This document shows, piece after piece, positions 418 through 11,051 of a stretch of DNA of 35,395 nt. How positions within the stretch are numbered: position 1 is the first letter of the stretch; every line of letters begins with the position of its first letter. A model generated the notes under the pieces. It saw only the letters and a program-made list of their open reading frames with translations. It searched no databases and was not told the origin of the DNA. The DNA is from an uncultured Phenylobacterium sp. (lineage in GTDB: Bacteria; Pseudomonadota; Alphaproteobacteria; Caulobacterales; Caulobacteraceae). A program made the translations under genes and the position numbers. The stretch covers positions 1 to 35,395 of the forward strand of contig NZ_CADEGK010000016.1 in the NCBI RefSeq assembly GCF_902826855.1, given 5' to 3'.

Positions 418-897
418 ATGCGGTTCTACCACTTCACGGCGGAGGAGAACCTTCGGGGCATTGCTGCAGAGGGGCTTAGGTTCGGCGACGTCCCAACCTC
501 GCCGACTGACGGAGTGCAGGCCGTCTGGCTCACGACGAGCCCCGACTCGGCTGGCCATGGACTACCTCGGGTCTCGCGAGTGATGACCGAGGCTGAACGC
601 GCCATGCAGCAAGCTCGACTTGGTGTGCCGGTGCCGGCCGGCCTATTTTGGCCTGACAAGCAACGCTTTCGGTTTTCAATAGATCTAGAGCCGGACTTGG
701 CGCTAGCTCAATGGAGTGAGTGGGCGGTGCTTCGAGGTATCCCCCGCAGCTGGCGCAAGACACTGGAGCGTGCAGGTGGTCGCCAAGCGAAGACCTGGTG
801 GCTGTATTTCGGAACTATAGCACCGGAGGCCTTAGGCGGTGGCCCGATCGACTTACGCACGGGGCTCGTGTGGCCGGGTTGGCCCGATGTGTTTTGA
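418..897 (+). CDS. ART-like (DarT/HFT-type) protein of unknown function
   Basis: This 159-residue soluble protein opens with MRFYHFT, then ENLRGIAAEGL, then VWLTT around residue 36. This order (His-aromatic-Thr, a helix ending in Gly-Leu, then a strand) is the pattern of ADP-ribosyltransferase-fold proteins such as DarT-like and 'HYT' families. The fold call is inferred from motif order only, and no catalytic Glu has been assigned. The C-terminal half is rich in Trp (WWLYFGT). It is followed after 64 bases by a HigA-type antitoxin gene, and a near-perfect palindrome lies between them. A toxin role is therefore plausible but unproven. The alternative is a phage or element accessory protein with no toxin activity. 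Confidence 0.7.
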   Translation: MRFYHFTAEENLRGIAAEGLRFGDVPTSPTDGVQAVWLTTSPDSAGHGLPRVSRVMTEAERAMQQARLGVPVPAGLFWPDKQRFRFSIDLEPDLALAQWSEWAVLRGIPRSWRKTLERAGGRQAKTWWLYFGTIAPEALGGGPIDLRTGLVWPGWPDVF

Positions 898-961: not shown

Positions 962-1291
962 ATGGCGAAGCCTCTGAAACGCGGCCTGGCGCCGAACCAC
1001 CCCGGCGAGATCCTGCGGCTCACGGTCCTGCCGTCGCTGCTGACCGAGCGCGACATGCCCAAGGGCGCGTTCGCCGAGCGCCTGGGCGTCAGCTACGACG
1101 TGCTCGACAACCTGGTGAGCGGCAAGACGAACATGACGCCGTCGCTCGCCCTCCGCCTCGGCCGCGTGCTCGGCAACGAGCCGCAGTTTTGGATGAACCT
1201 CCAGGCGAACTACGACCTGTGGAAAGCGGAGGCGGCGATGGGCGAGCATCTGGCGGCATTGAAGCCCGTCGGGAAGCTGAAGGCCTGGTAG
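962..1291 (+). CDS. higA: HigA-type addiction module antitoxin (XRE-family HTH)
   Basis: This 109-residue protein has the typical HigA opening, NHPGEILR at about residues 13-20, followed by a helix-turn-helix (AFAERLGVSYDVLDNLVSGK) and the family tail around QFWMNLQANYDLWKAE. In the family, HigA neutralises the RelE-like RNase HigB and represses the operon. No HigB-like gene of about 90 residues lies upstream or downstream here; the neighbour is the ART-like protein at 418-897. Either this is an orphan antitoxin or it has been recruited to a different partner. The inverted repeat just upstream fits autorepression. The family call is strong; the partner is inference. Confidence 0.9.
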   Translation: MAKPLKRGLAPNHPGEILRLTVLPSLLTERDMPKGAFAERLGVSYDVLDNLVSGKTNMTPSLALRLGRVLGNEPQFWMNLQANYDLWKAEAAMGEHLAALKPVGKLKAW

Positions 1292-1420: not shown

Positions 1421-1804
1421 ATGAAGCTCGACGACTATGTGAAAGAGACGCTGCTCTCGATCTCACGCGGAGTGCGCGCCGCTCAAGAGGACCCAGACCA
1501 CGGAGAACACGTGGGGCGAGTGCCGGTGACGAGTACCCAAGACCTCCAGGGGAACACCGTCACTACTGTTAGCTTCGACTTGTCCACGACCAGCGAGGAC
1601 AAGGGGAGCGTAGGAGGCGGCATCAGCGTCGTTCCCTTCAGTGCTAAGGCGGAGTCGTCCAGCGGTAGCAGGGCCGCGAACCGCATTCAGTTCTCACTGC
1701 CGTTGGCAATCCCGAAGCCACAGGCCCAGCGGAATGATGACGATGCGCGGCGTCAGCGCGAAAGCGCCGCTATTCGGCGGAGGCCGCCTAGCGACTTCGG
1801 TTAG
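1421..1804 (+). CDS. Small conserved protein of unknown function (amphipathic helix plus beta domain)
   Basis: The preferred start is the ATG at 1421, giving 127 residues; upstream codons in frame do not look protein-like. The N-terminus (MKLDDYVKETLLSI) is an amphipathic helix. A middle segment runs from about TVTTVSFDLSTT to a Gly/Ser-rich turn and ends NRIQFSLPLAIP, which suggests a beta-sandwich-like domain. I recognise the layout from bacterial hypothetical proteins that often occur near conflict genes, but I cannot name a family with certainty. The last 17 bases overlap the convergent gene at 1788-2117. The Arg-rich tail may be a read-through extension typical of element genes. Confidence 0.7.
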   Translation: MKLDDYVKETLLSISRGVRAAQEDPDHGEHVGRVPVTSTQDLQGNTVTTVSFDLSTTSEDKGSVGGGISVVPFSAKAESSSGSRAANRIQFSLPLAIPKPQAQRNDDDARRQRESAAIRRRPPSDFG

Positions 1805-2117
1805 CTGGCGGGCTCAGGGTCCACGCCAGCACGGCCGCGCCCCGATACCACCCCAGCGGCTCCCCGCTGCTTCGCTGAGGCTCGGTGGACACGCCGATCC
1901 GGTAACCGCGCGCAACGTCCTGCAGCCCCGCAGGCACGTAGCCGCCGCGGATCTCGCCCACTAGGTCCAGGACCCGCGCGAAGCCGTCGGGCGTCCCTCC
2001 GAGGGCCTCCAGCGTGTAGGCGATCTCCATGGGCCCGCACGTGCGCCAGGCATCTCGCGGCGCCCACTCGTGCATGAGCCGGTCTCGGTCCCAGAACTCG
2101 GCGGCGCTCTCGCTCAT
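1788..2117 (-). CDS. Hypothetical protein, about 109 residues
   Basis: The ATG at 2117 gives a protein beginning MSESAAEFWDRDRLMHEW; a start at 2153 is possible but the added residues look non-coding. The sequence is soluble and acidic, with a Trp-rich N-terminal half and a compact body (GGYVPAGLQDVARGYRIGV). No family is recognised. It overlaps the end of the convergent plus-strand gene by 17 bases. It could be a real element gene or a chance open frame; codon use in this frame looks coding-like. The function is unknown. Confidence 0.55.
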   Translation of the reverse strand: MSESAAEFWDRDRLMHEWAPRDAWRTCGPMEIAYTLEALGGTPDGFARVLDLVGEIRGGYVPAGLQDVARGYRIGVSTEPQRSSGEPLGWYRGAAVLAWTLSPPANRSR

Positions 2118-2194: not shown

Positions 2195-2887
2195 TTAAGC
2201 CGGCAGCGGCTCGTCGCTCAAGATTCGCAGCAGTTCGACGCCGTAGCTGCTCAGGACCGCGCGGCCGATGAAGACGGCGCGTTCGCCTCGACTGCCATCA
2301 CGATCTCGAATGCAGCCGAGATCCGCCAGCCGATGAAGCGAGATGTCCGCCTCCTCTCTGCTGATGCCGAGTAGATTGGCCGCGATGATATAAGCATTTT
2401 CAGAGCTGTCCTGGCCTCGCTTGAGGTCGGGGACGCGCAGGAGCACGAGCGCGTCCACCGGATCCAGGCTCTTCAGCGTGTCGAGGAACGTCTGCCGCAC
2501 GCGCTTGCTGCGCGCCGGGTCCATCGCCGCGGCCAGGAGCCTCGCCCAGAGGTCCAGCAGCTCTTCGCGGCTTTCGTCTGCTGCATGCTCAAGCAGCGGG
2601 ATCGCGACGCTCAAGGACACCGGTTCCGGATCGACGCCTCTAGCGTCAAGACGCTCTTTGGCGGCGCGGCCGAGGTTGATCATGTTTTCGACGCGGCGGG
2701 CGCGTATCCAATCGGCGCCCAGCAGACCGACTAGGTCCTCGGGGAGGGAGCCTAAGATACTCGTCAGGTAACCGCCCAAAGCCTTCGCCGAGTCGAGCCC
2801 CTTACCCCCCAGCTTGAAGGCCTCCTGGAGAGCCTTCGCCTGTTCGTCCGTCACGGGGATCAGGCTGCCGCCTGCGGGTTCGCTCAC
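2195..2887 (-). CDS. Abi-alpha (DUF4393-like) abortive infection protein
   Basis: The GTG at 2887 gives a 230-residue protein starting MSEPAGGSLIPV. The upstream gene's TGA (2891-2889) ends one base before this GTG, so the two are translationally coupled; longer frames into the upstream gene give Arg/Ser-rich shadow sequence. Residues about 40-150 carry the Abi-alpha pattern: a hydrophobic helix with Asp-Trp (GLLGADWIRARR), then an 'ep.sl..a.pLLe.aadEs.eEL.dLWA.LLAaamdp' block, then FLDTLKSLDP. A C-terminal helical region (ADISLHRLADLGCI) resembles a winged helix. Members were first described in lactococcal phage abortive infection. A role in phage defence is inferred from the family and from the linked HEPN-like genes. 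Confidence 0.82.
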   Translation of the reverse strand: MSEPAGGSLIPVTDEQAKALQEAFKLGGKGLDSAKALGGYLTSILGSLPEDLVGLLGADWIRARRVENMINLGRAAKERLDARGVDPEPVSLSVAIPLLEHAADESREELLDLWARLLAAAMDPARSKRVRQTFLDTLKSLDPVDALVLLRVPDLKRGQDSSENAYIIAANLLGISREEADISLHRLADLGCIRDRDGSRGERAVFIGRAVLSSYGVELLRILSDEPLPA

Positions 2888-2888
2888 G

Positions 2889-3596
2889 TCAGGCCAATTC
2901 AGCTGGGGGAGGGGGCAGCACTGGCGCGTGCGGCTGGGCCGCGATCTTCGCCGGCAACTCGAAGGCCACCTCGAAGAACAGTCTGAGGAAGTCGACGTGT
3001 TCGATGGCTCGGTCCATGTCGGCCTGCAGGTCGTGAGTCGCGTCGGAACCTTCCTCCCAGAGCTCCTGCGCCCAGGCCGCGATGCTAGCGGTGAGCAATC
3101 CGGCGGTAGCGAGATTATTGATACGTTCGCGCCGTCCACCTGTGGTTTGGCCCAGACCCTTGAGGGCTACGTCTAAGCACGACCTCGCGCCGCTCATAAT
3201 CCCGGGGGCGTTGCGACGCCGCCCTGCGTCCTCCTGGACGAACCTGAATGCGTCAGCGACCAAGGTTGGTACATGGCGGAAGGTCGCCGAGCCAGGCGCG
3301 GAATCTGGGACGGTCTCGATCATCACGGTGCGCAAGGCCACGTCGGTCTCGTTGGGCCCACTGTGTTGCCACACCGCAAAGAGCGTACCCCCTGGTGACT
3401 GGGTCGTGAGGAGCACGGCGAAGGGCATTTGGCAGGCCGGGCAGACGGCGGCCGAAGCGCAGCAGCTCGCGTTGCCACTGTTTCCACTCGGGATCGACCT
3501 ACGGGCATCCGACCACCACTTGAGTGGTTGTGCTAAGGGCATGCGCTCAGTCGCGCCACATATCGGGCAATTCAGACGCGCAAGGGGCAGTGCCAT
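2889..3596 (-). CDS. Zinc-ribbon DUF4145-like (HEPN-type) protein
   Basis: This 235-residue protein has a zinc ribbon at the N-terminus (C10-P-I-C13 and C52-P-A-C55). A helical domain follows, with the DUF4145 layout: GARSCLDVALKGLG, an INNLATAGLLT helix, then WAQELWEEGSDATH. In DUF4145 the last motif normally reads R..GN.A.H, a HEPN RX6H. Here the Arg is Trp and the Asn is Ser, while the His remains, so RNase activity may be lost. DUF4145 proteins are frequent in restriction and defence loci. It is the first gene of a minus-strand pair with the Abi-alpha protein, with one base between stop and start, and it is divergent from another HEPN-like gene at 3687. Confidence 0.75.
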   Translation of the reverse strand: MALPLARLNCPICGATERMPLAQPLKWWSDARRSIPSGNSGNASCCASAAVCPACQMPFAVLLTTQSPGGTLFAVWQHSGPNETDVALRTVMIETVPDSAPGSATFRHVPTLVADAFRFVQEDAGRRRNAPGIMSGARSCLDVALKGLGQTTGGRRERINNLATAGLLTASIAAWAQELWEEGSDATHDLQADMDRAIEHVDFLRLFFEVAFELPAKIAAQPHAPVLPPPPAELA

Positions 3597-3686
3597 AGCC
3601 GGAACAAGCAGGTGGCCCGCCGGAGAGTCAACGGTGGCGCTTCCTCTGCCGTGTGATGCAGCCTGACGAACACGGGGTAATCGACG

Positions 3687-4286
3687 ATGGCGAACAGCCT
3701 GAGGGGCACGACGGGCGGAGGAAAACAGCTTCGGGCCCTAGCCTCGAGGATCCCCGCTGACACCGACTTTCACGGCATGGTTCTCGGCCTTGAGCAGCCC
3801 GGCCACACAGTGGCATCCCGCGACAGGTACATAGCCATCGTCGGATCTGGCGCCGTCGAATACGCGCTCCAAACCGCAATATCTAAGCACCTCACTCCAA
3901 CCCTTAGCTCGAGCGAGCGGGAGACGCTATTCCAGCAGACCATTGGCGATTTCGCTCGTCGAATCGCCATAGCCCGCGGGCTAGGAATTGTGAGCGCCGA
4001 AAATGCGCTTGAGTTGAACCGTCTGCGGGTGGTTCGAAACGCCTTTGCTCACACCGTCGCGCCGGTGACGTTTGACGACCCCGCGGTTGCCGACGTGATG
4101 CATAGAGTTTGGCACATCCCGGTGGCCAGTTGGGACACGTACTTCTTCACCAGCTTCCCCCTACACCGCCAGTACATCATCATCTGCGCCGCCTTCTACA
4201 GCTACCTAGACGGGTACCTCCCCGGGCAAATGCCCCCGCGGAGGGCCGAGCGCAAACCCGCAGCCGAGGGCGACGCGAGATCTTAG
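3687..4286 (+). CDS. HEPN/MltR-like protein with RX4H motif
   Basis: This 199-residue protein is all-helical by composition. Its central block (IGDFARRIAIARGLG ... ELNRLRVVRNAFAH ... PVTFDDP) matches the mannitol-repressor MltR style of HEPN protein. R117-N-A-F-A-H122 is a classic RX4-6H, the catalytic motif of HEPN RNases. Regulatory MltR proteins normally sit in mannitol operons, and none is present here. The location beside Abi-alpha and DUF4145 inside an integrative element suggests a toxin or defence role, which is inference. The 90-base gap to the divergent gene at 3596 probably holds both promoters. The C-terminal tail is basic and disordered. Confidence 0.72.
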   Translation: MANSLRGTTGGGKQLRALASRIPADTDFHGMVLGLEQPGHTVASRDRYIAIVGSGAVEYALQTAISKHLTPTLSSSERETLFQQTIGDFARRIAIARGLGIVSAENALELNRLRVVRNAFAHTVAPVTFDDPAVADVMHRVWHIPVASWDTYFFTSFPLHRQYIIICAAFYSYLDGYLPGQMPPRRAERKPAAEGDARS

Positions 4287-4653: not shown

Positions 4654-5190
4654 ATGTCGATGATCGAGCCATCGCTCCGCTTTTCTGAGGTCGCTGCGGC
4701 AGCGCTTGTTACGCCGAAGTCACTTCGCAACTGGCTTCAGCGGTATCCGGTAGAGCTGTACTCCGTCACGCCCGAGGGGCGTGATTGGCGGCGGTTCTGC
4801 CTTGCTGACTTGGCAGTGATTTCGCTGGCGCGTCACCTCTTGCCGTTCACTGGGGCCGTAGAGACGGCGAGCGCGGCGGCCAGGACCATCCTGAGGCACA
4901 TGCAGGGTGAGGACTGGCTGCACGCCTCGCCTAGTGGCTTTTTGAGCTTTTGGATGGTCCATCGCTACGTGGTGCTGCTCCCTAGCGGTGGCCCAGGCGA
5001 CTCTCCTCCGACGCGCGCCCAGTGGACAATATCGATCCCTGAGCCGGGGCGGCCGCCGCTGGTGGACGCGCCGGCCTACCTCACCATTGTTCCGTATGCC
5101 GTCCTGTCGCCGGCCTTCGAGCGGGCTGGCGCAATACCGGCCTCCTCGCGCCCGACCAGGCCGGGGCCAGTGCGGAGCGCGGAAGGGTGA
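4654..5190 (+). CDS. MerR-like HTH protein of the integrase module
   Basis: This 178-residue protein begins with a MerR/AlpA-style winged helix: LRFSEVAAAALVTPKSLRNW, then a basic segment and FCLADLAVISLARHLL. The C-terminal half (about 90-178) is a beta-rich region with a Pro-rich tail and no recognised domain. Its stop overlaps the GTG of the next gene (GTGA at 5187-5190), so it is part of a tight three-gene unit with the excisionase-like gene and the integrase. A role in control of excision or of element gene expression is likely from context only. The ATG at 4654 is preferred, though a second ATG lies two codons in at 4660. Confidence 0.7.
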   Translation: MSMIEPSLRFSEVAAAALVTPKSLRNWLQRYPVELYSVTPEGRDWRRFCLADLAVISLARHLLPFTGAVETASAAARTILRHMQGEDWLHASPSGFLSFWMVHRYVVLLPSGGPGDSPPTRAQWTISIPEPGRPPLVDAPAYLTIVPYAVLSPAFERAGAIPASSRPTRPGPVRSAEG

Positions 5191-5438
5191 CCCGCGCCGA
5201 CGCGCTCCCCCTCAGCCTGCCGCCGCGGGGCCTTGGTCGCGAGATCGCCGCGCAGTACCTCGGCGTCAGCGTCGGCAAGTTCGACGCGATGGTGGCGGAC
5301 GGCCGGATGCCCGCACCGAAACGGATCGACGCCCGCAAGGTCTGGGATCGCGAGGCGCTTGACCGTGCGTTCTTCGCCCTGCCCGAAGACGGGGAGGGGG
5401 AGGGCGCCTCCGGCAATCCGTGGGACGGCGCGAAATGA
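5187..5438 (+). CDS. Excisionase/AlpA-like small DNA-binding protein
   Basis: This 83-residue protein starts at a GTG that overlaps the upstream stop. Residues about 15-55 form an AlpA/Xis-type helix-turn-helix: GREIAAQYLGVSVGKFDAMV, then a turn with MPAPKRID and the recognition-wing pattern ARKVWDREALDRAF. The tail is acidic. It ends inside the integrase start (ATGA at 5435-5438). Small winged-helix proteins directly upstream of a tyrosine recombinase usually act as recombination directionality factors, and that role is inferred here. It may also regulate the upstream promoter. Confidence 0.8.
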   Translation: MTRADALPLSLPPRGLGREIAAQYLGVSVGKFDAMVADGRMPAPKRIDARKVWDREALDRAFFALPEDGEGEGASGNPWDGAK

Positions 5439-6520
5439 AGAGGCGACCCAAGGGCGTCAGCTCCTACCGAGATCGCCACGGCAAGCTGTGGTGGAAGTAT
5501 CGAGCCAAAGGCGTGAAGAGCGCCCAGACGCGGGCCTTGTTCGACTCTGCAGAATGGTGGGCCTGGTACTCTGCCGCCGCGAACGGCCAGCGCGCTTCGC
5601 TGGGGGCGGGGTCCGACCGCACTAAGCCGGGAACCCTAAACGCCTTGGCCGTGGCCTACTACACGTCGGCCGATTGGAAGCTGCTCAGCAAGACTACGCA
5701 GACCACCTATCGGGGCATCATCGACCGCTTCCGCGCCCAGCACGGAGATAAGCCTCTGCGGCGTCTGCAGGCGCAGCACGTCCGGGCGATGATGGACGCC
5801 CGTGCCGACACCCCGGCGGCAGCCAACAACCTCTTGAAGGTGTTGCGCGCGATGATGCGGTTCGCGGTTGACCGGGCGATGATCACGATCGACCCGACGG
5901 CCAACGTGAAGCCCCTGCGCTACAAGAGCGACGGTTTCCACACCTGGACCGAAGATGAGATCGCGCGCTTTGACGCGCGCTGGCCGCTCGGCACCCAGGA
6001 GCGGCTCGCCAAGGATCTTCTGCTCTACACCGCCCAGCGCAGCTCGGACGTGCGCACCATGGGCCTGCAGCACGTCAGGGGCGGTGTCGTGAAGGTCAAG
6101 CAGCAGAAGACTGGCACCAGTCTCGAGATCGGGCTGCACCAAGCGCTGCGCGCCTCGCTGGCGGCGCGGCCGACTAACCAGTTGACGTTCGTCACCACGC
6201 CGTCGGGCGAGCCCTACACGGCCGCCGGCTTCGGCAACTGGTTCAGGGAAGCGGCGCGCAAAGCGGGTCTCCCGGTTGGTGTCTCGGCCCATGGCCTGCG
6301 GAAGGCCGCGGCGCGTCGCTTGGCCGAGGCCGGGTGCACAGCTTCCGAGATTGCGGCGATCACCGGTCATCGCACCCTGAAGGAAGTGTCCCGCTACACC
6401 CAGGCCGCCGACCAGCGAACCATGGCTGACGCGGCCATGCTGAAGATCGGCGGCGGGACGCAGGGAGAACAAAATCTGTCTAACCTTGGGAACGGGTTAG
6501 ACAATGCGGGGGTCAAGTAG
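5435..6520 (+). CDS. int: Tyrosine recombinase (site-specific integrase)
   Basis: The ATG at 5435 overlaps the preceding stop and gives 361 residues, a normal phage-integrase length. An N-terminal basic segment and a SAM-like core-binding domain (about 65-160, TTYRGIIDRFRAQHGD) lead to the catalytic domain. Visible catalytic residues are R202 (TAQRSSDVRTM), K225 region (KQQKTG), H286-x-x-R289 (HGLRKAAARRL), H312 (ITGHRTL) and the nucleophile Y321 (VSRYTQ). All are intact, so the enzyme should be active. Its stop is 28 bases from the 3' end of tRNA-Ser, the expected target for this family. It probably integrates and, with the excisionase-like gene, excises the element covering the left of the window. 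Confidence 0.95.
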   Translation: MKRRPKGVSSYRDRHGKLWWKYRAKGVKSAQTRALFDSAEWWAWYSAAANGQRASLGAGSDRTKPGTLNALAVAYYTSADWKLLSKTTQTTYRGIIDRFRAQHGDKPLRRLQAQHVRAMMDARADTPAAANNLLKVLRAMMRFAVDRAMITIDPTANVKPLRYKSDGFHTWTEDEIARFDARWPLGTQERLAKDLLLYTAQRSSDVRTMGLQHVRGGVVKVKQQKTGTSLEIGLHQALRASLAARPTNQLTFVTTPSGEPYTAAGFGNWFREAARKAGLPVGVSAHGLRKAAARRLAEAGCTASEIAAITGHRTLKEVSRYTQAADQRTMADAAMLKIGGGTQGEQNLSNLGNGLDNAGVK

Positions 6521-6548: not shown

Positions 6549-6580
6549 TGGCGGACGGGGTGGGATTCGAACCCACGGTG
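6549..6580. other. Probable chromosomal attachment site (tRNA-Ser 3' end)
   Basis: The T-arm, acceptor stem and CCA of tRNA-Ser lie directly beside the recombinase stop at 6520. Tyrosine recombinases of this kind usually cross over in the 3' half of a tRNA and rebuild it on insertion. The matching repeat that would mark the far end of the element was not found between 1 and 6500, so the other boundary should lie left of the window. The exact core is unknown. Confidence 0.55.
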
Positions 6581-6638
6581 GGCTTTCACCCACGGCGGTT
6601 TTCAAGACCGCTGCCTTAAACCACTCGGCCACCCGTCC
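6549..6638 (-). tRNA. tRNA-Ser(UGA)
   Basis: Read on the minus strand this 90-base gene has acceptor arms GGACGGG (6638-6632) and CCCGTCC (6559-6553), a discriminator G and an encoded CCA at 6551-6549. The anticodon loop CTTGAAA gives anticodon UGA, which reads UCA codons. A long variable arm (GTGGG...CCCAC) and the T-loop GTTCGAATC are present, as expected of a class II serine tRNA. Its 3' end faces the integrase gene. Confidence 0.97.
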
Positions 6639-6745: not shown

Positions 6746-7783
6746 ATGGCGAATTCCATGAAGCTTGGGCGGAAAGCCCGCCTTGTCCTGCTGTTGATGG
6801 CGGGAGCTTCGCTTTCGGCCTGCGTGACGCCGAAGTATTCCACCCGGGCGACGGGACCGGGCGTGGGCGCGCCGGCGCCGGGGAAGGGCGGTTACAAGGT
6901 GGGCGCCCCCTATCAGGTGGGCGGCATCTGGTACGTGCCTAAGGAGGATCCGAACTATGATCGCACTGGGATCGCCTCCTGGTACGGCGACGCCTTCCAC
7001 CTGAAGGCCACCGCCAACGGCGAGGTCTTCGATATGAACGCGGTGAGCGCGGCTCACACCACCCTGCCGCTGCCATCCATGGTGGAGGTCACCAATCTCG
7101 ACAATGGCCGCAAGCTGGTCCTGCGGGTCAACGACCGAGGCCCGTTCGTGGACAACCGGATCATCGACCTTTCCCGCGAGGCGGCCCGCCAGCTGGGCGT
7201 CGAGCGCGCCGGCCTGGCCAGGGTGCGCGTGCGCTACGTGGGCCCGGCGCCGCTGACGGGACCGGACGCGGGCGTGCGCTACGCCGCCAGCAGGCCGCTT
7301 GCCACGCGCATGGCCGCGGCGCCGCTGCGTCCCGGCCCGGTGCGGTCGGGACCCGATTCGGTGATGGCGCTCGCGTCGAACGAGGCGCCGCCGCCGATGC
7401 GGGCTGCGCCACCGATGCGGGCTGCGCCGTCCGCCGGTGCGATCAGCGCCCAGGAGCTGCCGCCGCTGACTGGCGCCGCCTACATTTCCTCCGCCCCGAT
7501 CGCCGGCCCGGAGCCTGCGCCCACGGTGCTGGCGCGGACCGGAACGGCGAACTCGGCCCTGCGTGTCCAGGCCGGCGCCTTCTCCAGCGAGACCAACGCC
7601 CAGCGGGCGGTCTCGGCCCTGGCCCAGACTGGGCGGGCCTCGATCGAGCGGATGCAGCGCGACGGCATGACCTATTATCGCGTCACCCTGCCGGCCCCCG
7701 CCGACGAGGCGGCCGCGTACGAGCTGCGCGACCGGGTGGCCGAGATCGGCTTCGCCGACGCCAGGGTGGTGCGCACCTTCTAG
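6746..7783 (+). CDS. rlpA: RlpA-family septal ring lytic transglycosylase / lipoprotein with SPOR domain
   Basis: The ATG at 6746 is preferred because a GGAG lies 7 bases upstream; a GTG at 6743 is too close to it. The N-terminus is a lipoprotein signal (LVLLLMAGASLSAC), with lipidation expected at C26. A double-psi beta-barrel RlpA domain follows (GIASWYGDAFHLKATANGE, then VEVTNLDNGRKLVLRVNDRG and IIDLSREAARQLG). A Pro/Ala-rich linker with a small MRAAPP repeat leads to a C-terminal SPOR domain (LRVQAGAFSSETNAQRAV), which binds denuded septal peptidoglycan. The protein probably acts at the outer membrane or septum during cell separation. It is the first gene of the housekeeping block right of the tRNA. 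Confidence 0.92.
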   Translation: MANSMKLGRKARLVLLLMAGASLSACVTPKYSTRATGPGVGAPAPGKGGYKVGAPYQVGGIWYVPKEDPNYDRTGIASWYGDAFHLKATANGEVFDMNAVSAAHTTLPLPSMVEVTNLDNGRKLVLRVNDRGPFVDNRIIDLSREAARQLGVERAGLARVRVRYVGPAPLTGPDAGVRYAASRPLATRMAAAPLRPGPVRSGPDSVMALASNEAPPPMRAAPPMRAAPSAGAISAQELPPLTGAAYISSAPIAGPEPAPTVLARTGTANSALRVQAGAFSSETNAQRAVSALAQTGRASIERMQRDGMTYYRVTLPAPADEAAAYELRDRVAEIGFADARVVRTF

Positions 7784-7814
7784 ACAACGGGGCCGAACAC
7801 GCCATTTTGGCGGC

Positions 7815-8450
7815 GTGGCGCGCGGTCGGTTCATCACGTTCGAAGGCGGGGAGGGGGCCGGGAAATCCACCCAGGTCCAGCGCCTTGCCACGCGCCTGAA
7901 GGCCCAGGGCCGCGACCTGATCGCAACGCGGGAACCGGGCGGTTCGCCCGGCGCGGAGAGCATCCGCGACTTGGTCCTGAGGGGTGAGGCGGACCGCTGG
8001 AGCCCGGTCACCGAGACGCTGCTGATGTACGCCGCGCGGCGCGACCACGTGGAACGCGTCATCCGGCCTGCCCTGGAGCGCGGGGCCTGGGTCGTTTGCG
8101 ACCGCTTCGCCGACTCCACGCGGGCCTACCAGGGCGCGGCGGGCGGAACCGATCCGGACCTGATCGCGGCGCTGGAGACCCACGTCTTGGAGACCACCCG
8201 ACCTGACCTGACCCTGGTCTTCGACCTGCCAGTCGCGATGGGGCTGGCGCGCGCCCATGCGCGGGCCGGCGCGGAGATGCGGTTCGAGTCGAAGGGGACG
8301 GCCTTCCACGAGCGGCTGCGTGAGGGTTTCCGGGCCATCGCCGCGGCCGAGCCGCAGCGCTGCGTCGTGATCGACGCCACGGGGTCCATGGACGCCGTCG
8401 AGGCGCTGGTGTGGGCCACGGTGGCCGGACGGCTTGCGGTCCATGGCTGA
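7815..8450 (+). CDS. tmk: Thymidylate kinase
   Basis: This 211-residue enzyme phosphorylates dTMP to dTDP in the dTTP pathway. The P-loop GGEGAGKS is at residues 11-18, the DR(F/Y) motif at VVCDRFADSTRAYQG, and REPGGSPGAE is the typical thymidine-site segment. Length and motifs are normal. The GTG at 7815 is the only suitable start after the rlpA stop; it lies inside a small inverted repeat (7798-7803 with 7812-7817) that could hide it. The stop overlaps the holB start by 8 bases. A GTG start and the overlap suggest coupled, modest expression. Confidence 0.96.
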   Translation: MARGRFITFEGGEGAGKSTQVQRLATRLKAQGRDLIATREPGGSPGAESIRDLVLRGEADRWSPVTETLLMYAARRDHVERVIRPALERGAWVVCDRFADSTRAYQGAAGGTDPDLIAALETHVLETTRPDLTLVFDLPVAMGLARAHARAGAEMRFESKGTAFHERLREGFRAIAAAEPQRCVVIDATGSMDAVEALVWATVAGRLAVHG

Positions 8451-9444
8451 CACCGCAGTCCCGCATGCCCGCGAGGTTTACGACCTGCAGGGCCAGGAGC
8501 CGGCGGAGGCGGCGTTCGAGGCGGCCCGCGCGCGCGGGCGATTGCACCACGCCTGGCTGCTGACCGGACCCGAGGGGGTCGGCAAGGCCACCTTTGCCTA
8601 TCGCGCCGCGCGCCGGCTGCTGGGCGGGCTGAACGACCCGCGCTTTGGCATACTTGGCGTCGATCCGGAGCACCCGGTGGTCCGCCAGGTGGCCGCCCGC
8701 AGCCATCCCGACCTGCTGGTGCTGGAACGCGAGGGTCCGGACGGCAAGGCGCGCCGCGTGATCCCCGTGGACGACGCGCGGCGGTTGGGCGAGTTCTTCT
8801 CCAAGTCGCCGGCCAGCGCCCCGCACCGGGTGGCCATCGTCGACGCGGCAGACGACCTCAACCCCAACGCCGCCAACGCCATCCTGAAGACGCTGGAGGA
8901 GCCGCCGCCGCATGGGGTGCTGCTGATGGTGTCCCATGCGCCGGGGCGGCTGTTGCCGACCATCCGCTCGCGGTGCCGCCGGCTGGCCTTCCAGCCGCTG
9001 GGCGTCGAGGCAACCGCCGCCTTCGTCCGGGCGCGGACCGAGATGAATCCGGAGGAGGCGCTGCGGCTGGCGCACATGGCGCAGGGCGCGCCGGGCCGGG
9101 CGCTGCAGCTGGCGGCGACGAATGCGCTTTCCCTGGACGACGCGGCCCGCGAGCTTATCTCCGGGCTGCCGCAGGTGGACGAGAGCCGGGCGCTGCAGCT
9201 CGCCGAATCGTTCCGTGGCGGGGCCGGTGCGGCGCAGTTCCAGCTGCTGTTCGAGCGGCTGTCGGACCGGGTGCATTCGCTGGCCATGGACCGGGCCGGG
9301 CAGGGTATCGGGCCGCTTGATCGCTGGGCCGACGCATGGGAGACGCTGCAGCGCCTGCCGCGCGAGGTGGAGCAGCTCAACCTCGACCGCGCCGACGCGC
9401 TCTACACGGCCCTGGGGGAGCTCCGCCGGGCCGCCCAAACCTAG
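8443..9444 (+). CDS. holB: DNA polymerase III delta' subunit
   Basis: The ATG at 8443, inside the end of tmk, gives 333 residues. The protein is a clamp-loader AAA+ subunit: Walker-like GPEGVGKAT at 42-50, IVDAADDLNPNAANAILKTL (the Walker B and delta' core) and the sensor segment SRCRRL. The zinc-binding cysteine cluster of the E. coli protein is absent. With delta and gamma/tau it loads the sliding clamp. The tmk-holB pairing is conserved across proteobacteria. A TTG at 8434 is a less likely start. Confidence 0.93.
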   Translation: MADTAVPHAREVYDLQGQEPAEAAFEAARARGRLHHAWLLTGPEGVGKATFAYRAARRLLGGLNDPRFGILGVDPEHPVVRQVAARSHPDLLVLEREGPDGKARRVIPVDDARRLGEFFSKSPASAPHRVAIVDAADDLNPNAANAILKTLEEPPPHGVLLMVSHAPGRLLPTIRSRCRRLAFQPLGVEATAAFVRARTEMNPEEALRLAHMAQGAPGRALQLAATNALSLDDAARELISGLPQVDESRALQLAESFRGGAGAAQFQLLFERLSDRVHSLAMDRAGQGIGPLDRWADAWETLQRLPREVEQLNLDRADALYTALGELRRAAQT

Positions 9445-9453
9445 ATCCGGCGA

Positions 9454-10230
9454 ATGATCATCGACAGCCACGTCAACCTGCACGCACCTCAATTCGACGA
9501 GGACCGGGACGCCGTGATCGCACGCGCGCGTGCCGCCGGGGTCGGGCTGATGGTCAACATCTGCGACCGGGTCTCCAACTTCGCCGCATGCCGCGCCATT
9601 GCCGACGAACCCGACATCTGGGCGACCGTCGGCACCCATCCGCACGAGGCCAAGGAAGACCCGGACCTGGCGCCTTCGACGCTGGTGGACCTGGCCGCTG
9701 ACCCGCGCGTGGTGGGGATCGGCGAATGCGGCCTCGACTTCCACTACGATCTCAGTCCGCGCGATACCCAGGCGCGGGTGTTCCGCGCCCACTGCGCCGC
9801 AGCGCGCGAGACTGGCCTGCCGCTGGTCGTCCATACCCGCGAGGCGGATGAGGCGATGGGCGACATCCTGGAGGACGAACACCGGCGCGGGGCGTTCCCG
9901 ATCCTGATGCACTGCTACACGTCCGGCCCTGAATTGGCGCGGCGGTGCGCCAACCTGGGCGCCTGGTTCTCCGTCTCCGGCATCTCCACCTTCAAGGCGG
10001 CCGAGGACGTTCGCGCGGTGATCCGCGACATGCCGGCCGAGCGGATCATCATCGAGACCGACTGTCCGTATCTTGCGCCCGTGCCGCACCGGGGCCGTCG
10101 CAACGAGCCGGCCTACGTCCCCCACGTGCTGGCCAAGCTCGCCGAGGTGCGGGGCTGGAGCCTGGACGAGGCGGAGGTGCGGACGACGGACGCATTCTTC
10201 GCCCTGTTCCAGCGGATCCCGCGGCCATGA
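9454..10230 (+). CDS. tatD: TatD-family metal-dependent DNase/hydrolase
   Basis: This 258-residue TIM-barrel hydrolase shows the family signatures GIGECGLDFHY (E91), VVHTREA (H127), LMHCYTSG (H153) and ETDCPYLAPVP (D203). At the N-terminus the usual HxH metal ligands read D-S-H6-V-N8-L-H10, so the second His is Asn. The other ligands are intact, so at least one metal site should remain. TatD enzymes act on DNA ends or damaged DNA and on D-aminoacyl bonds. It starts 10 bases after holB and its stop overlaps the next gene. In many alphaproteobacteria metG sits between holB and tatD; it is absent here. Confidence 0.93.
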   Translation: MIIDSHVNLHAPQFDEDRDAVIARARAAGVGLMVNICDRVSNFAACRAIADEPDIWATVGTHPHEAKEDPDLAPSTLVDLAADPRVVGIGECGLDFHYDLSPRDTQARVFRAHCAAARETGLPLVVHTREADEAMGDILEDEHRRGAFPILMHCYTSGPELARRCANLGAWFSVSGISTFKAAEDVRAVIRDMPAERIIIETDCPYLAPVPHRGRRNEPAYVPHVLAKLAEVRGWSLDEAEVRTTDAFFALFQRIPRP

Positions 10231-11051
10231 GCGGGACGCTGGAGATCACCATCCTGGGCTGCGGGTCGTCGGGCGGCGTGCCGCGCGCCGACGGCGACTG
10301 GGGACTCTGCGACCCGGCCGAGCCGAAGAACTTCCGCACGCGCTGTTCGCTGCTCGTCCGGCGGCTGGGGGAGGGCTCCCAGGGTCCCGCGGAACAGACC
10401 ACCGCGCTGATAGACGCCTCGCCGGAGCTGCGGCTTCAGACCGCCAAGGCCGGGGTGAAGCGCGTGGATGCGGTGCTGCTGACCCACGACCACGCCGACC
10501 AGGTGCACGGCCTGGACGACGTGCGCGCCTTCTACCTTCGCCAGCAGGCGCGCATTCCGTGCTGGATGGACGCCGCCACCGACGCCACCATGATGCGCCG
10601 CTTCGGGTACATCTTCGAGGGTGAGGGCGGCTATCCGGCGATCTGCGACCGCCACGCGATCCCGGCGCACGGCGAGGCCTGGCAGGTGGCGGGGCCGACC
10701 GGCGCTATCCCGGTGGCCACCTTCGACCAGGACCACGGGGGCGTGCGTTCGGTGGGCTATCGCTTCGGCGGCGTGGCCTATTCCAGCGACGTGGTGAACC
10801 TGGACGAGGCGGCGTTCGCCGCGCTGGCGGACCTCGACATCTGGATCGTGGATGCGCTGCGCCGCCGGCCGCATCCGACCCACGCGCATCTCGACCGCGC
10901 GCTGGAATGGATTGCACGCGTGAAGCCGCGCCGTGCGATCCTCACCAACATGCACATCGACATGGACTTCGGCCAGCTTACAGCCGAGCTGCCGGCCGGC
11001 GTGGAACCGGCCTACGACGGGATGGTCGTCCTGCATGACCTGAAGGCCTAA
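10227..11051 (+). CDS. MBL-fold metallohydrolase, PhnP-like
   Basis: The ATG at 10227 overlaps the tatD stop (ATGA) and gives 274 residues. It begins with the PhnP-type strand ITILGCGSSGGVPR, has a Cys pair (C28, C40) and the motif H87-D-H89-A-D91-Q92-V-H94-G. The usual HxHxDH has Gln in the last position here. Later metal-binding segments are FDQDHGG and HPTHAHLDRA. Relatives include phosphoribosyl cyclic phosphodiesterase and RNase Z-like enzymes, but the substrate of this chromosomal TatD-linked group is not known to me. It is cytoplasmic and co-expressed with tatD. Confidence 0.9.
   Translation: MSGTLEITILGCGSSGGVPRADGDWGLCDPAEPKNFRTRCSLLVRRLGEGSQGPAEQTTALIDASPELRLQTAKAGVKRVDAVLLTHDHADQVHGLDDVRAFYLRQQARIPCWMDAATDATMMRRFGYIFEGEGGYPAICDRHAIPAHGEAWQVAGPTGAIPVATFDQDHGGVRSVGYRFGGVAYSSDVVNLDEAAFAALADLDIWIVDALRRRPHPTHAHLDRALEWIARVKPRRAILTNMHIDMDFGQLTAELPAGVEPAYDGMVVLHDLKA

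What the first reader, a model, noticed from the sequence alone, without database searches (positions are those of the whole stretch)
2195..4286. Candidate defence cassette: Abi-alpha, DUF4145-HEPN and an RX4H MltR-like protein
Three genes in a mobile block combine an Abi-alpha family member, a zinc-ribbon DUF4145-like HEPN protein (coupled one base before it) and a divergent MltR-like HEPN protein with an intact R117-x4-H122. HEPN RNases and Abi-alpha are both linked to abortive infection. I do not know a described system made of this trio, so it is the best novel-system candidate. The DUF4145 protein may be a catalytically dead HEPN sensor or partner, because its motif Arg is Trp.
Basis: partly seen in the sequence, partly recalled or inferred. 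Interest (0 to 1): 0.72.

Follow-up and report, generated by a model that had tools for sequence, protein, structure and literature searches.

The report
Prophage's anti-phage cargo: HEPN with Abi-alpha
Next to the integrase of a mobile element inserted in a tRNA gene, likely a prophage, sit three genes of families linked to bacterial self-sacrifice against viruses; they likely protect the element's host from rival phages, but the trio was found together in no other genome searched.

Summary
The three genes are real. 2195-2887(-) is Abi-alpha (Pfam, above cut-off). 2889-3596(-) is a zinc-ribbon HEPN of the DUF4145 kind, joined to Abi-alpha as TGA-C-GTG. 3687-4286(+) is an MtlR-like HEPN with an intact R117-x4-H122.

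The three-gene system is not supported. All three families met only in the window's own genome (249 family genomes per query), and Abi-alpha with HEPN nowhere else in 385 class genomes. The HEPN occurs without Abi-alpha in other chromosomes and a viral contig.

New here is the setting. The genes lie beside the AlpA-like gene and integrase of an element in tRNA-Ser(UGA). A perfect 16-nt copy of that tRNA end lies on another contig, where phage genes meet chromosome, and one relative shows a likely empty site. So the cassette is likely prophage cargo. Some elements with related integrases carry known defence genes (Shedu SduA, UG29 reverse transcriptase).

Best reading: separate abortive-infection units stacked as prophage cargo. 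Function is untested. Ordinary in kind, useful as a mapped locus.

The parts
2195..2887 (-). Abi-alpha (DUF4393) protein, 230 aa, GTG start; predicted N-terminal helices and C-terminal winged helix
2889..3596 (-). Zinc-ribbon (C10xxC13, C52xxC55) + HEPN (DUF4145 kind) protein, 235 aa; W180/G183 replace the motif arginines, H188 kept
3687..4286 (+). MtlR-like HEPN protein, 199 aa, intact R117-N118-x3-H122
   Evidence: 55% and 37% identical homologues; alignment A4; profile matches MtlR 6kcr/3brj
4654..5190 (+). MerR-like ORF between the cassette and the AlpA-like gene
   Evidence: MerR_1 0.0025, below cut-off; phrog_3470 0.0017
5187..5438 (+). AlpA-like regulator/excisionase
   Evidence: phrog_25900 transcriptional regulator 1.4e-14 and phrog_66 excisionase 2.4e-4; homologue next to the integrase in 8 of 20 sister loci; the name AlpA is recalled
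5420..6520 (+). Tyrosine integrase of the element
   Evidence: PF00589 6.7e-18; related integrases abut a tRNA gene in 19 of 20 loci
6549..6564 (.). Likely attachment core: 16 nt of the tRNA 3' end with a perfect copy at contig G000:C6:9734-9749
6549..6638 (-). tRNA-Ser(UGA), insertion site
   Evidence: ARAGORN
1788..2117 (-). ORF of 109 aa downstream of Abi-alpha on the same strand; no Pfam, PADLOC or NCBIfam hit
1421..1804 (+). Trypco2-like ORF in the element
   Evidence: PF19631 1.5e-4, 22.4 bits vs cut-off 24.2
962..1291 (+). HigA-family antitoxin-like gene in the element, no toxin gene identified beside it
   Evidence: TIGR02607 78.9 bits vs cut-off 47.7

Best explanation
The three genes sit beside the AlpA-like gene and integrase of an element inserted in a tRNA-Ser gene, likely a prophage or phage satellite, and they likely serve as its anti-phage cargo, each predicted to act as its own abortive-infection unit rather than as one three-part machine. 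Shown: the families, the coupled HEPN/Abi-alpha gene pair, the tRNA/integrase setting, and a matching end on a second contig where phage genes meet chromosome. Inferred: during infection by a rival phage the zinc-ribbon HEPN protein would recognise a phage product with its N-terminal zinc-ribbon/beta part and respond through its HEPN domain, cutting or only binding RNA since both motif arginines are lost while His188 and Asp185 stay; co-expressed Abi-alpha would bring early lysis or membrane failure, as premature lysis is reported for the Enterococcus faecalis family member; the divergently transcribed MtlR-like protein, with an intact Rx4H, would be a separate RNase.
For: Families and folds. 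Abi-alpha of E. faecalis V583 prophage 6 aborts phage infection by premature lysis (PMC6356687, abstract and passages). PADLOC's PD-T7-4 model matches 3 of 20 members of the HEPN alignment, best 1.4e-5; [quoted passage not shown] that these two are the same protein is my inference). Element: tRNA-Ser 6549-6638, integrase, 16-nt copy on contig C6 with tape measure, head protease, portal-like and replication-initiation genes on its element side. In relative G172 the tRNA is followed, from about 2.4 kb on, by the same chromosomal genes as on C6, mostly 61-90% identical and collinear. Sister integrases: 19 of 20 at a tRNA; among cargo picked by eye, PADLOC defence hits in 5 of 6 sister loci tested and phage structural or packaging genes in 5 of 7 loci tested. 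Separate action: the Trp-bearing HEPN subfamily occurs without Abi-alpha within the 8-kb flanks in Phenylobacterium, Brevundimonas, Ruegeria and Caulobacter, and in a 7.4-kb viral contig.
Against: No functional data. The window HEPN itself does not match PD-T7-4. Its motif arginines are lost, so RNase activity is doubtful. The element is split over two contigs with an unassembled middle, and tandem elements are not excluded. The chromosomal gene next to the C6 attachment copy is not near a tRNA in any of 29 fetched non-own loci, 6.3 kb beside the copy is not shared with the relatives compared, and three relatives with the tRNA lack the C6 genes nearby. The tight TGA-C-GTG coupling hints at joint action of HEPN and Abi-alpha, against full independence.
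Confidence: 0.5

Rival explanations
1. HEPN and Abi-alpha form one two-protein abortive-infection switch: the Arg-less zinc-ribbon HEPN senses the phage and turns on Abi-alpha; the MtlR-like gene is unrelated.
For: The stop and start are one base apart. Both motif arginines are lost while the fold and His188 stay, as a sensor would allow. One metagenome contig length (3973 bp) is shared by a HEPN and an Abi-alpha cluster.
Against: The pair recurs in no other of 249 family and 385 class genomes. The same HEPN subfamily lives without Abi-alpha. The contig-length match is what chance gives (0.29 expected).
Confidence: 0.22
2. The genes are prophage maintenance or regulation functions, not defence: Abi-alpha's winged helix and the MtlR-like protein regulate, and the HEPN binds RNA.
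Against: The third protein keeps Rx4H in 9 of 9 aligned sequences. The one tested Abi-alpha that I found aborts infection. Related elements carry defence genes near the integrase.
Confidence: 0.2
3. The trio is one new three-gene defence system, as first proposed.
For: Adjacent genes, two HEPN proteins and one Abi protein. In genome G026 a 55% identical MtlR-like gene also stands divergent from a DUF4145 HEPN gene (9.5e-8) followed by another ORF.
Against: G026's two partner genes are not detectably related to the window's HEPN and Abi-alpha (hhalign probabilities 0.3% and 0.7%), though this test is weak: it also gives 0.1% for the two HEPN families of the window against each other. No other fetched locus holds two of the three families.
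Confidence: 0.05

Closest known systems
Abi-alpha (EF2833) of Enterococcus faecalis V583 prophage 6, Pfam PF14337/DUF4393
   Same: Same Pfam family above its cut-off; likely prophage-borne too
   Different: Caulobacteraceae host (inferred), 230 against 272 residues, coupled to an upstream HEPN gene; function not tested
PD-T7-4 (E. coli, Vassallo 2022)
   Same: Its PADLOC model matches 3 of 20 members of the window HEPN's alignment; [quoted passage not shown]
   Different: The window protein itself does not reach E 1 with the model; whether PD-T7-4 has the Arg-to-Trp change was not looked at
RAZR, a zinc-finger HEPN RNase triggered by ring-shaped phage proteins (nature and function recalled; only the PDB title of 9y9c was seen)
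DUF4145 gene at the end of a candidate PICI at tRNA-Leu in Mycobacterium abscessus (PMC10465359, passages)
   Same: DUF4145-type gene in a small tRNA-inserted element, linked to phage resistance
   Different: Different host; there the link is transposon insertions upstream of the gene, with overexpression proposed by the authors
MtlR, mannitol operon repressor (6kcr, 3brj)
   Same: Profile of the third protein's family matches at 5.4e-6
   Different: Here beside integrase and Abi-alpha genes, no mannitol gene seen; intact Rx4H, which the HEPN review gives for 60% of MtlR proteins

Membership tests
Abi-alpha (PF14337) | Score above the Pfam gathering cut-off | tested here: met
   64.7 vs 29 bits
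Abi-alpha (PF14337) | Aborts phage infection with premature lysis | not testable with these tools
   Reported for EF2833 (PMC6356687)
DUF4145 (PF13643) | Score above the Pfam gathering cut-off (2889-3596) | tested here: not met
   16.9 vs 23.1 bits; precomputed PF13643 hits on 13 of the 29 listed proteins
HEPN superfamily fold (2889-3596) | Four-helix HEPN fold | tested here: met
HEPN RNase (2889-3596) | Rx4-6H active-site motif | tested here: not met
   G183 at -5 and W180 at -8 from H188, invariant in 20 of 20 aligned sequences
HEPN RNase (3687-4286) | Rx4-6H active-site motif | tested here: met
   R117-N118-x3-H122, invariant in 9 of 9 aligned sequences
MtlR (3687-4286) | NCBIfam MltR model above its cut-off | tested here: not met
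   12.5 vs 149 bits; remote profile match to MtlR structures
PD-T7-4 | PADLOC model match of the window protein | tested here: not met
   No hit at E<=1; 3 of 20 alignment members match
RAZR | Sequence match to the solved RAZR chain | tested here: inconclusive
Conserved three-gene system | Co-occurrence of the three families in other genomes | tested here: not met
   All three in 0 other genomes of 249; Abi-alpha with HEPN in 0 others of 385; 0 other loci of 178
tRNA-inserted prophage or satellite | Integrase at a tRNA 3' end, direct repeat at the far end, phage genes inside, empty site in a relative | tested here: inconclusive
   Integrase and tRNA met; 16-nt repeat and phage genes on contig C6; likely empty site in G172; middle unassembled

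The most novel reading that the evidence does not exclude
A prophage-borne two-protein suicide switch in which a HEPN protein that has lost its catalytic arginines serves as a zinc-ribbon phage sensor and releases Abi-alpha, with an active MtlR-like HEPN RNase as a second barrier beside it.
Probability: 0.13. Interest if true: 0.62.

Novelty: new member of a known kind. Interest (0 to 1): 0.36.

Why it matters
Abi-alpha has one tested member that I found in print (then), and its trigger is unknown to me. A natural operon pairing it with a zinc-ribbon HEPN gives a concrete trigger candidate to test. The uniformly Arg-less HEPN subfamily is a clean case for asking whether HEPN domains can defend without the classical motif. 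The tRNA/AlpA-like/integrase site is a place in Caulobacteraceae where further defence cargo can be looked for.

Tried and rejected
Metagenome co-occurrence: a shared longest-contig length (3973 bp) between a HEPN and an Abi-alpha cluster looked like a linked pair, but 0.29 such coincidences are expected, so it is not used as evidence. The lists in that script leave out the window's own cluster and two Abi-alpha rows without a contig length.

G026 (L042) has the same layout (MtlR-like gene divergent from a DUF4145 HEPN and a further ORF), but hhalign finds no relation of the partners to the window's genes. That test is weak, as it also misses the HEPN-to-HEPN relation of A1 and A4. It counts only as another HEPN next to an MtlR-like gene.

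Abi-alpha neighbours: ORFs around 14 of the 16 non-own Abi-alpha places were viewed (the two weakest, G611 and G375, were not). Possible HEPN neighbours are G060 (Abi_2 in two ORFs, E 0.019 and 0.093, below cut-off), G390 (HEPN, E 0.094, below cut-off) and G116 (RNAVAH motif seen by eye, no Pfam hit). Too weak to claim a rule. Two loci (G007, G141:C6) start at a contig end, so their upstream gene cannot be seen.

Contig-end overlap to link C16 to another contig: none. Empty site: of 7 relatives fetched, G172 clearly and G633 and G178 partly show C6 genes beyond the tRNA; G631, G187 and G144 do not, and the G199 stretch holds no tRNA. Direct repeats delimiting sister elements were found in only 5 of 18 tested, with no shuffled control.

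Full report
What is there. Three genes lie at 2195-4286: Abi-alpha 2195-2887(-), a zinc-ribbon HEPN 2889-3596(-) and an MtlR-like HEPN 3687-4286(+). The HEPN stop and the Abi-alpha GTG start are one base apart (TGA-C-GTG). The mechanical ORF start at 3139 is not the Abi-alpha start; homologues begin near the GTG. Abi_alpha is above Pfam's cut-off (64.7 vs 29 bits) and matches PADLOC's candidate PDC-S47 (1e-7). Both other proteins touch DUF4145 below its cut-off.

The third protein. It has few close relatives: none besides itself in 5.8 billion proteins by word search, but 10 of 249 family genomes at E<=1e-3, the own included, the best non-own 55% identical. Nine aligned sequences, the window's included, keep R117, N118, A121 and H122, and their profile finds MtlR structures. 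The review's table lists MtlR under the DUF4145-like heading, with the motif in 60%.

Co-occurrence. each searched 249 genomes of the family: HEPN 13, Abi-alpha 9, MtlR-like 10, each count including the window's own genome. Only the own genome has all three. G026 has a weak HEPN-profile hit and the MtlR-like gene, on different contigs. In 385 class genomes: Abi-alpha 7, HEPN 2, shared only by the own genome. These searches score a limited number of candidates per genome, so misses are possible. HMM searches over the ORFs (60 aa or more) of 178 loci found two or more of the families together only in the four loci that are copies of the window. In named genomes the HEPN stands without Abi-alpha within the 8-kb flanks in a Phenylobacterium MAG, Brevundimonas nasdae, Ruegeria halocynthiae and Caulobacter sp. 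17J65-9. It also occurs in a viral contig beside a minor tail protein gene, and a more distant relative lies in Paracoccus phage vB_PbeS_Pben1. Abi-alpha relatives lie near methyltransferase/helicase/nuclease genes on one plasmid and near a type I restriction gene on another.

The element. tRNA-Ser(UGA) is at 6549-6638(-) and the integrase ends at 6520. The window starts at the first base of contig C16 (38,830 bp), so the element runs off the left end. GC is 0.61-0.69 up to 6500 and 0.71-0.73 over 7001-11000. A perfect copy of window 6549-6564 lies at G000:C6:9734-9749 on the other strand, with no tRNA gene there; base composition gives about 0.03 such copies by chance (my arithmetic, not a call). 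On the element side of that copy are a tape measure protein, a head protease, a portal-like protein and an O-like replication protein (PHROGs); the other side looks chromosomal. In relative G172 the same tRNA is followed, from about 2.4 kb on, by orthologues of C6:16058-34984 in order, mostly 61-90% identical, with no integrase seen beside the tRNA; G178 and G633 show parts of this; three relatives do not. Against an exact match of the junction: the gene nearest the C6 copy is not beside a tRNA in 29 non-own loci, and 6.3 kb there is not shared. So the two contigs very likely flank one insertion site, and the window holds the integrase arm of a likely prophage or satellite; tandem elements remain possible.

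Sister elements. Of 239 family genomes, 29, the own included, have an integrase at E<=1e-40. Of 20 places fetched (of 30 non-own listed), 19 have a tRNA gene within about 120 bp of the integrase end (10 Ser, 5 Arg, 2 Glu, 2 Met) and 8 carry the AlpA-like gene. Ten cargo proteins picked by eye from six loci were scanned with PADLOC: hits at E<=0.001 in 6 of 10, in five of six loci, including SduA (4.3e-88), a type IV restriction-like protein (best hit Orf5 5.4e-91, mREase_IV 3.9e-87), a type II methyltransferase (3.7e-87), SoFic (1.8e-44) and the UG29 reverse transcriptase (E 0). Ten others from seven loci were scanned with PHROGs; five loci have head, packaging or tail genes. Because these were picked by eye and most element ends are unknown, this shows that defence cargo occurs in this zone, not how often.

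Mechanism. Shown: the families, the coupling and the place. Known for relatives: Abi-alpha EF2833 causes premature lysis and aborts infection (PMC6356687, abstract and passages); a DUF4145 gene in a tRNA-inserted candidate satellite of M. abscessus is tied to phage resistance (PMC10465359, passages); [quoted passage not shown] Inferred: sensing by the zinc-ribbon part, HEPN action on RNA by cutting or binding, lysis or membrane failure by Abi-alpha, RNA cleavage by the MtlR-like protein. I favour separate units because each family occurs elsewhere without the others; the coupled HEPN/Abi-alpha pair is the main rival.

Verdict. The three-gene system is not supported. The cassette is best filed as new members of known defence-linked families in a likely prophage cargo zone; kinship to Abi-alpha and to zinc-ribbon HEPN defence makes an anti-phage role plausible but untested. 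The window's family is Caulobacteraceae by inference: same-family genomes G201 and G003 have contigs of the same lengths as named Brevundimonas nasdae and Caulobacter contigs.

Noticed in passing
L005:8001-8378 and 8436-10382: In Caulobacter sp. 17J65-9 a relative of the HEPN gene lies directly upstream of cobT (CobT Pfam hits); the gene before it looked like cobS by eye only.
   Followed up: partly
window 418-897: ORF of 159 aa starting MRFYHFTAEENLRGI with no convincing family hit; the start resembles ADP-ribosyltransferase-like proteins from recall only.
   Followed up: no
window 1421-1804: Trypco2-like protein just below the Pfam cut-off (22.4 vs 24.2 bits) in the same element; that this domain is conflict-linked is recalled.
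   Followed up: no
window 962-1291; L002:5263-5421; L003:8692-8946: A HigA-family antitoxin-like gene or match lies within about 3 kb of the HEPN gene in the window and in two relatives; could be chance.
   Followed up: no
L117:3499-10908: A 2469-aa UG29 reverse transcriptase (PADLOC E 0) near a related integrase at tRNA-Ser, inside a possible 13.6-kb element.
   Followed up: partly
L053:3111-5525: On a Vibrio algicola plasmid an ApeA-like HEPN gene precedes a DUF4145 gene distantly related to the window's HEPN.
   Followed up: partly
L042:7127-9515: G026 carries three neighbouring genes: an MtlR-like gene (55% identical) divergent from a DUF4145 HEPN gene (RNIAAH) and an unknown 244-aa ORF.
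   Followed up: partly
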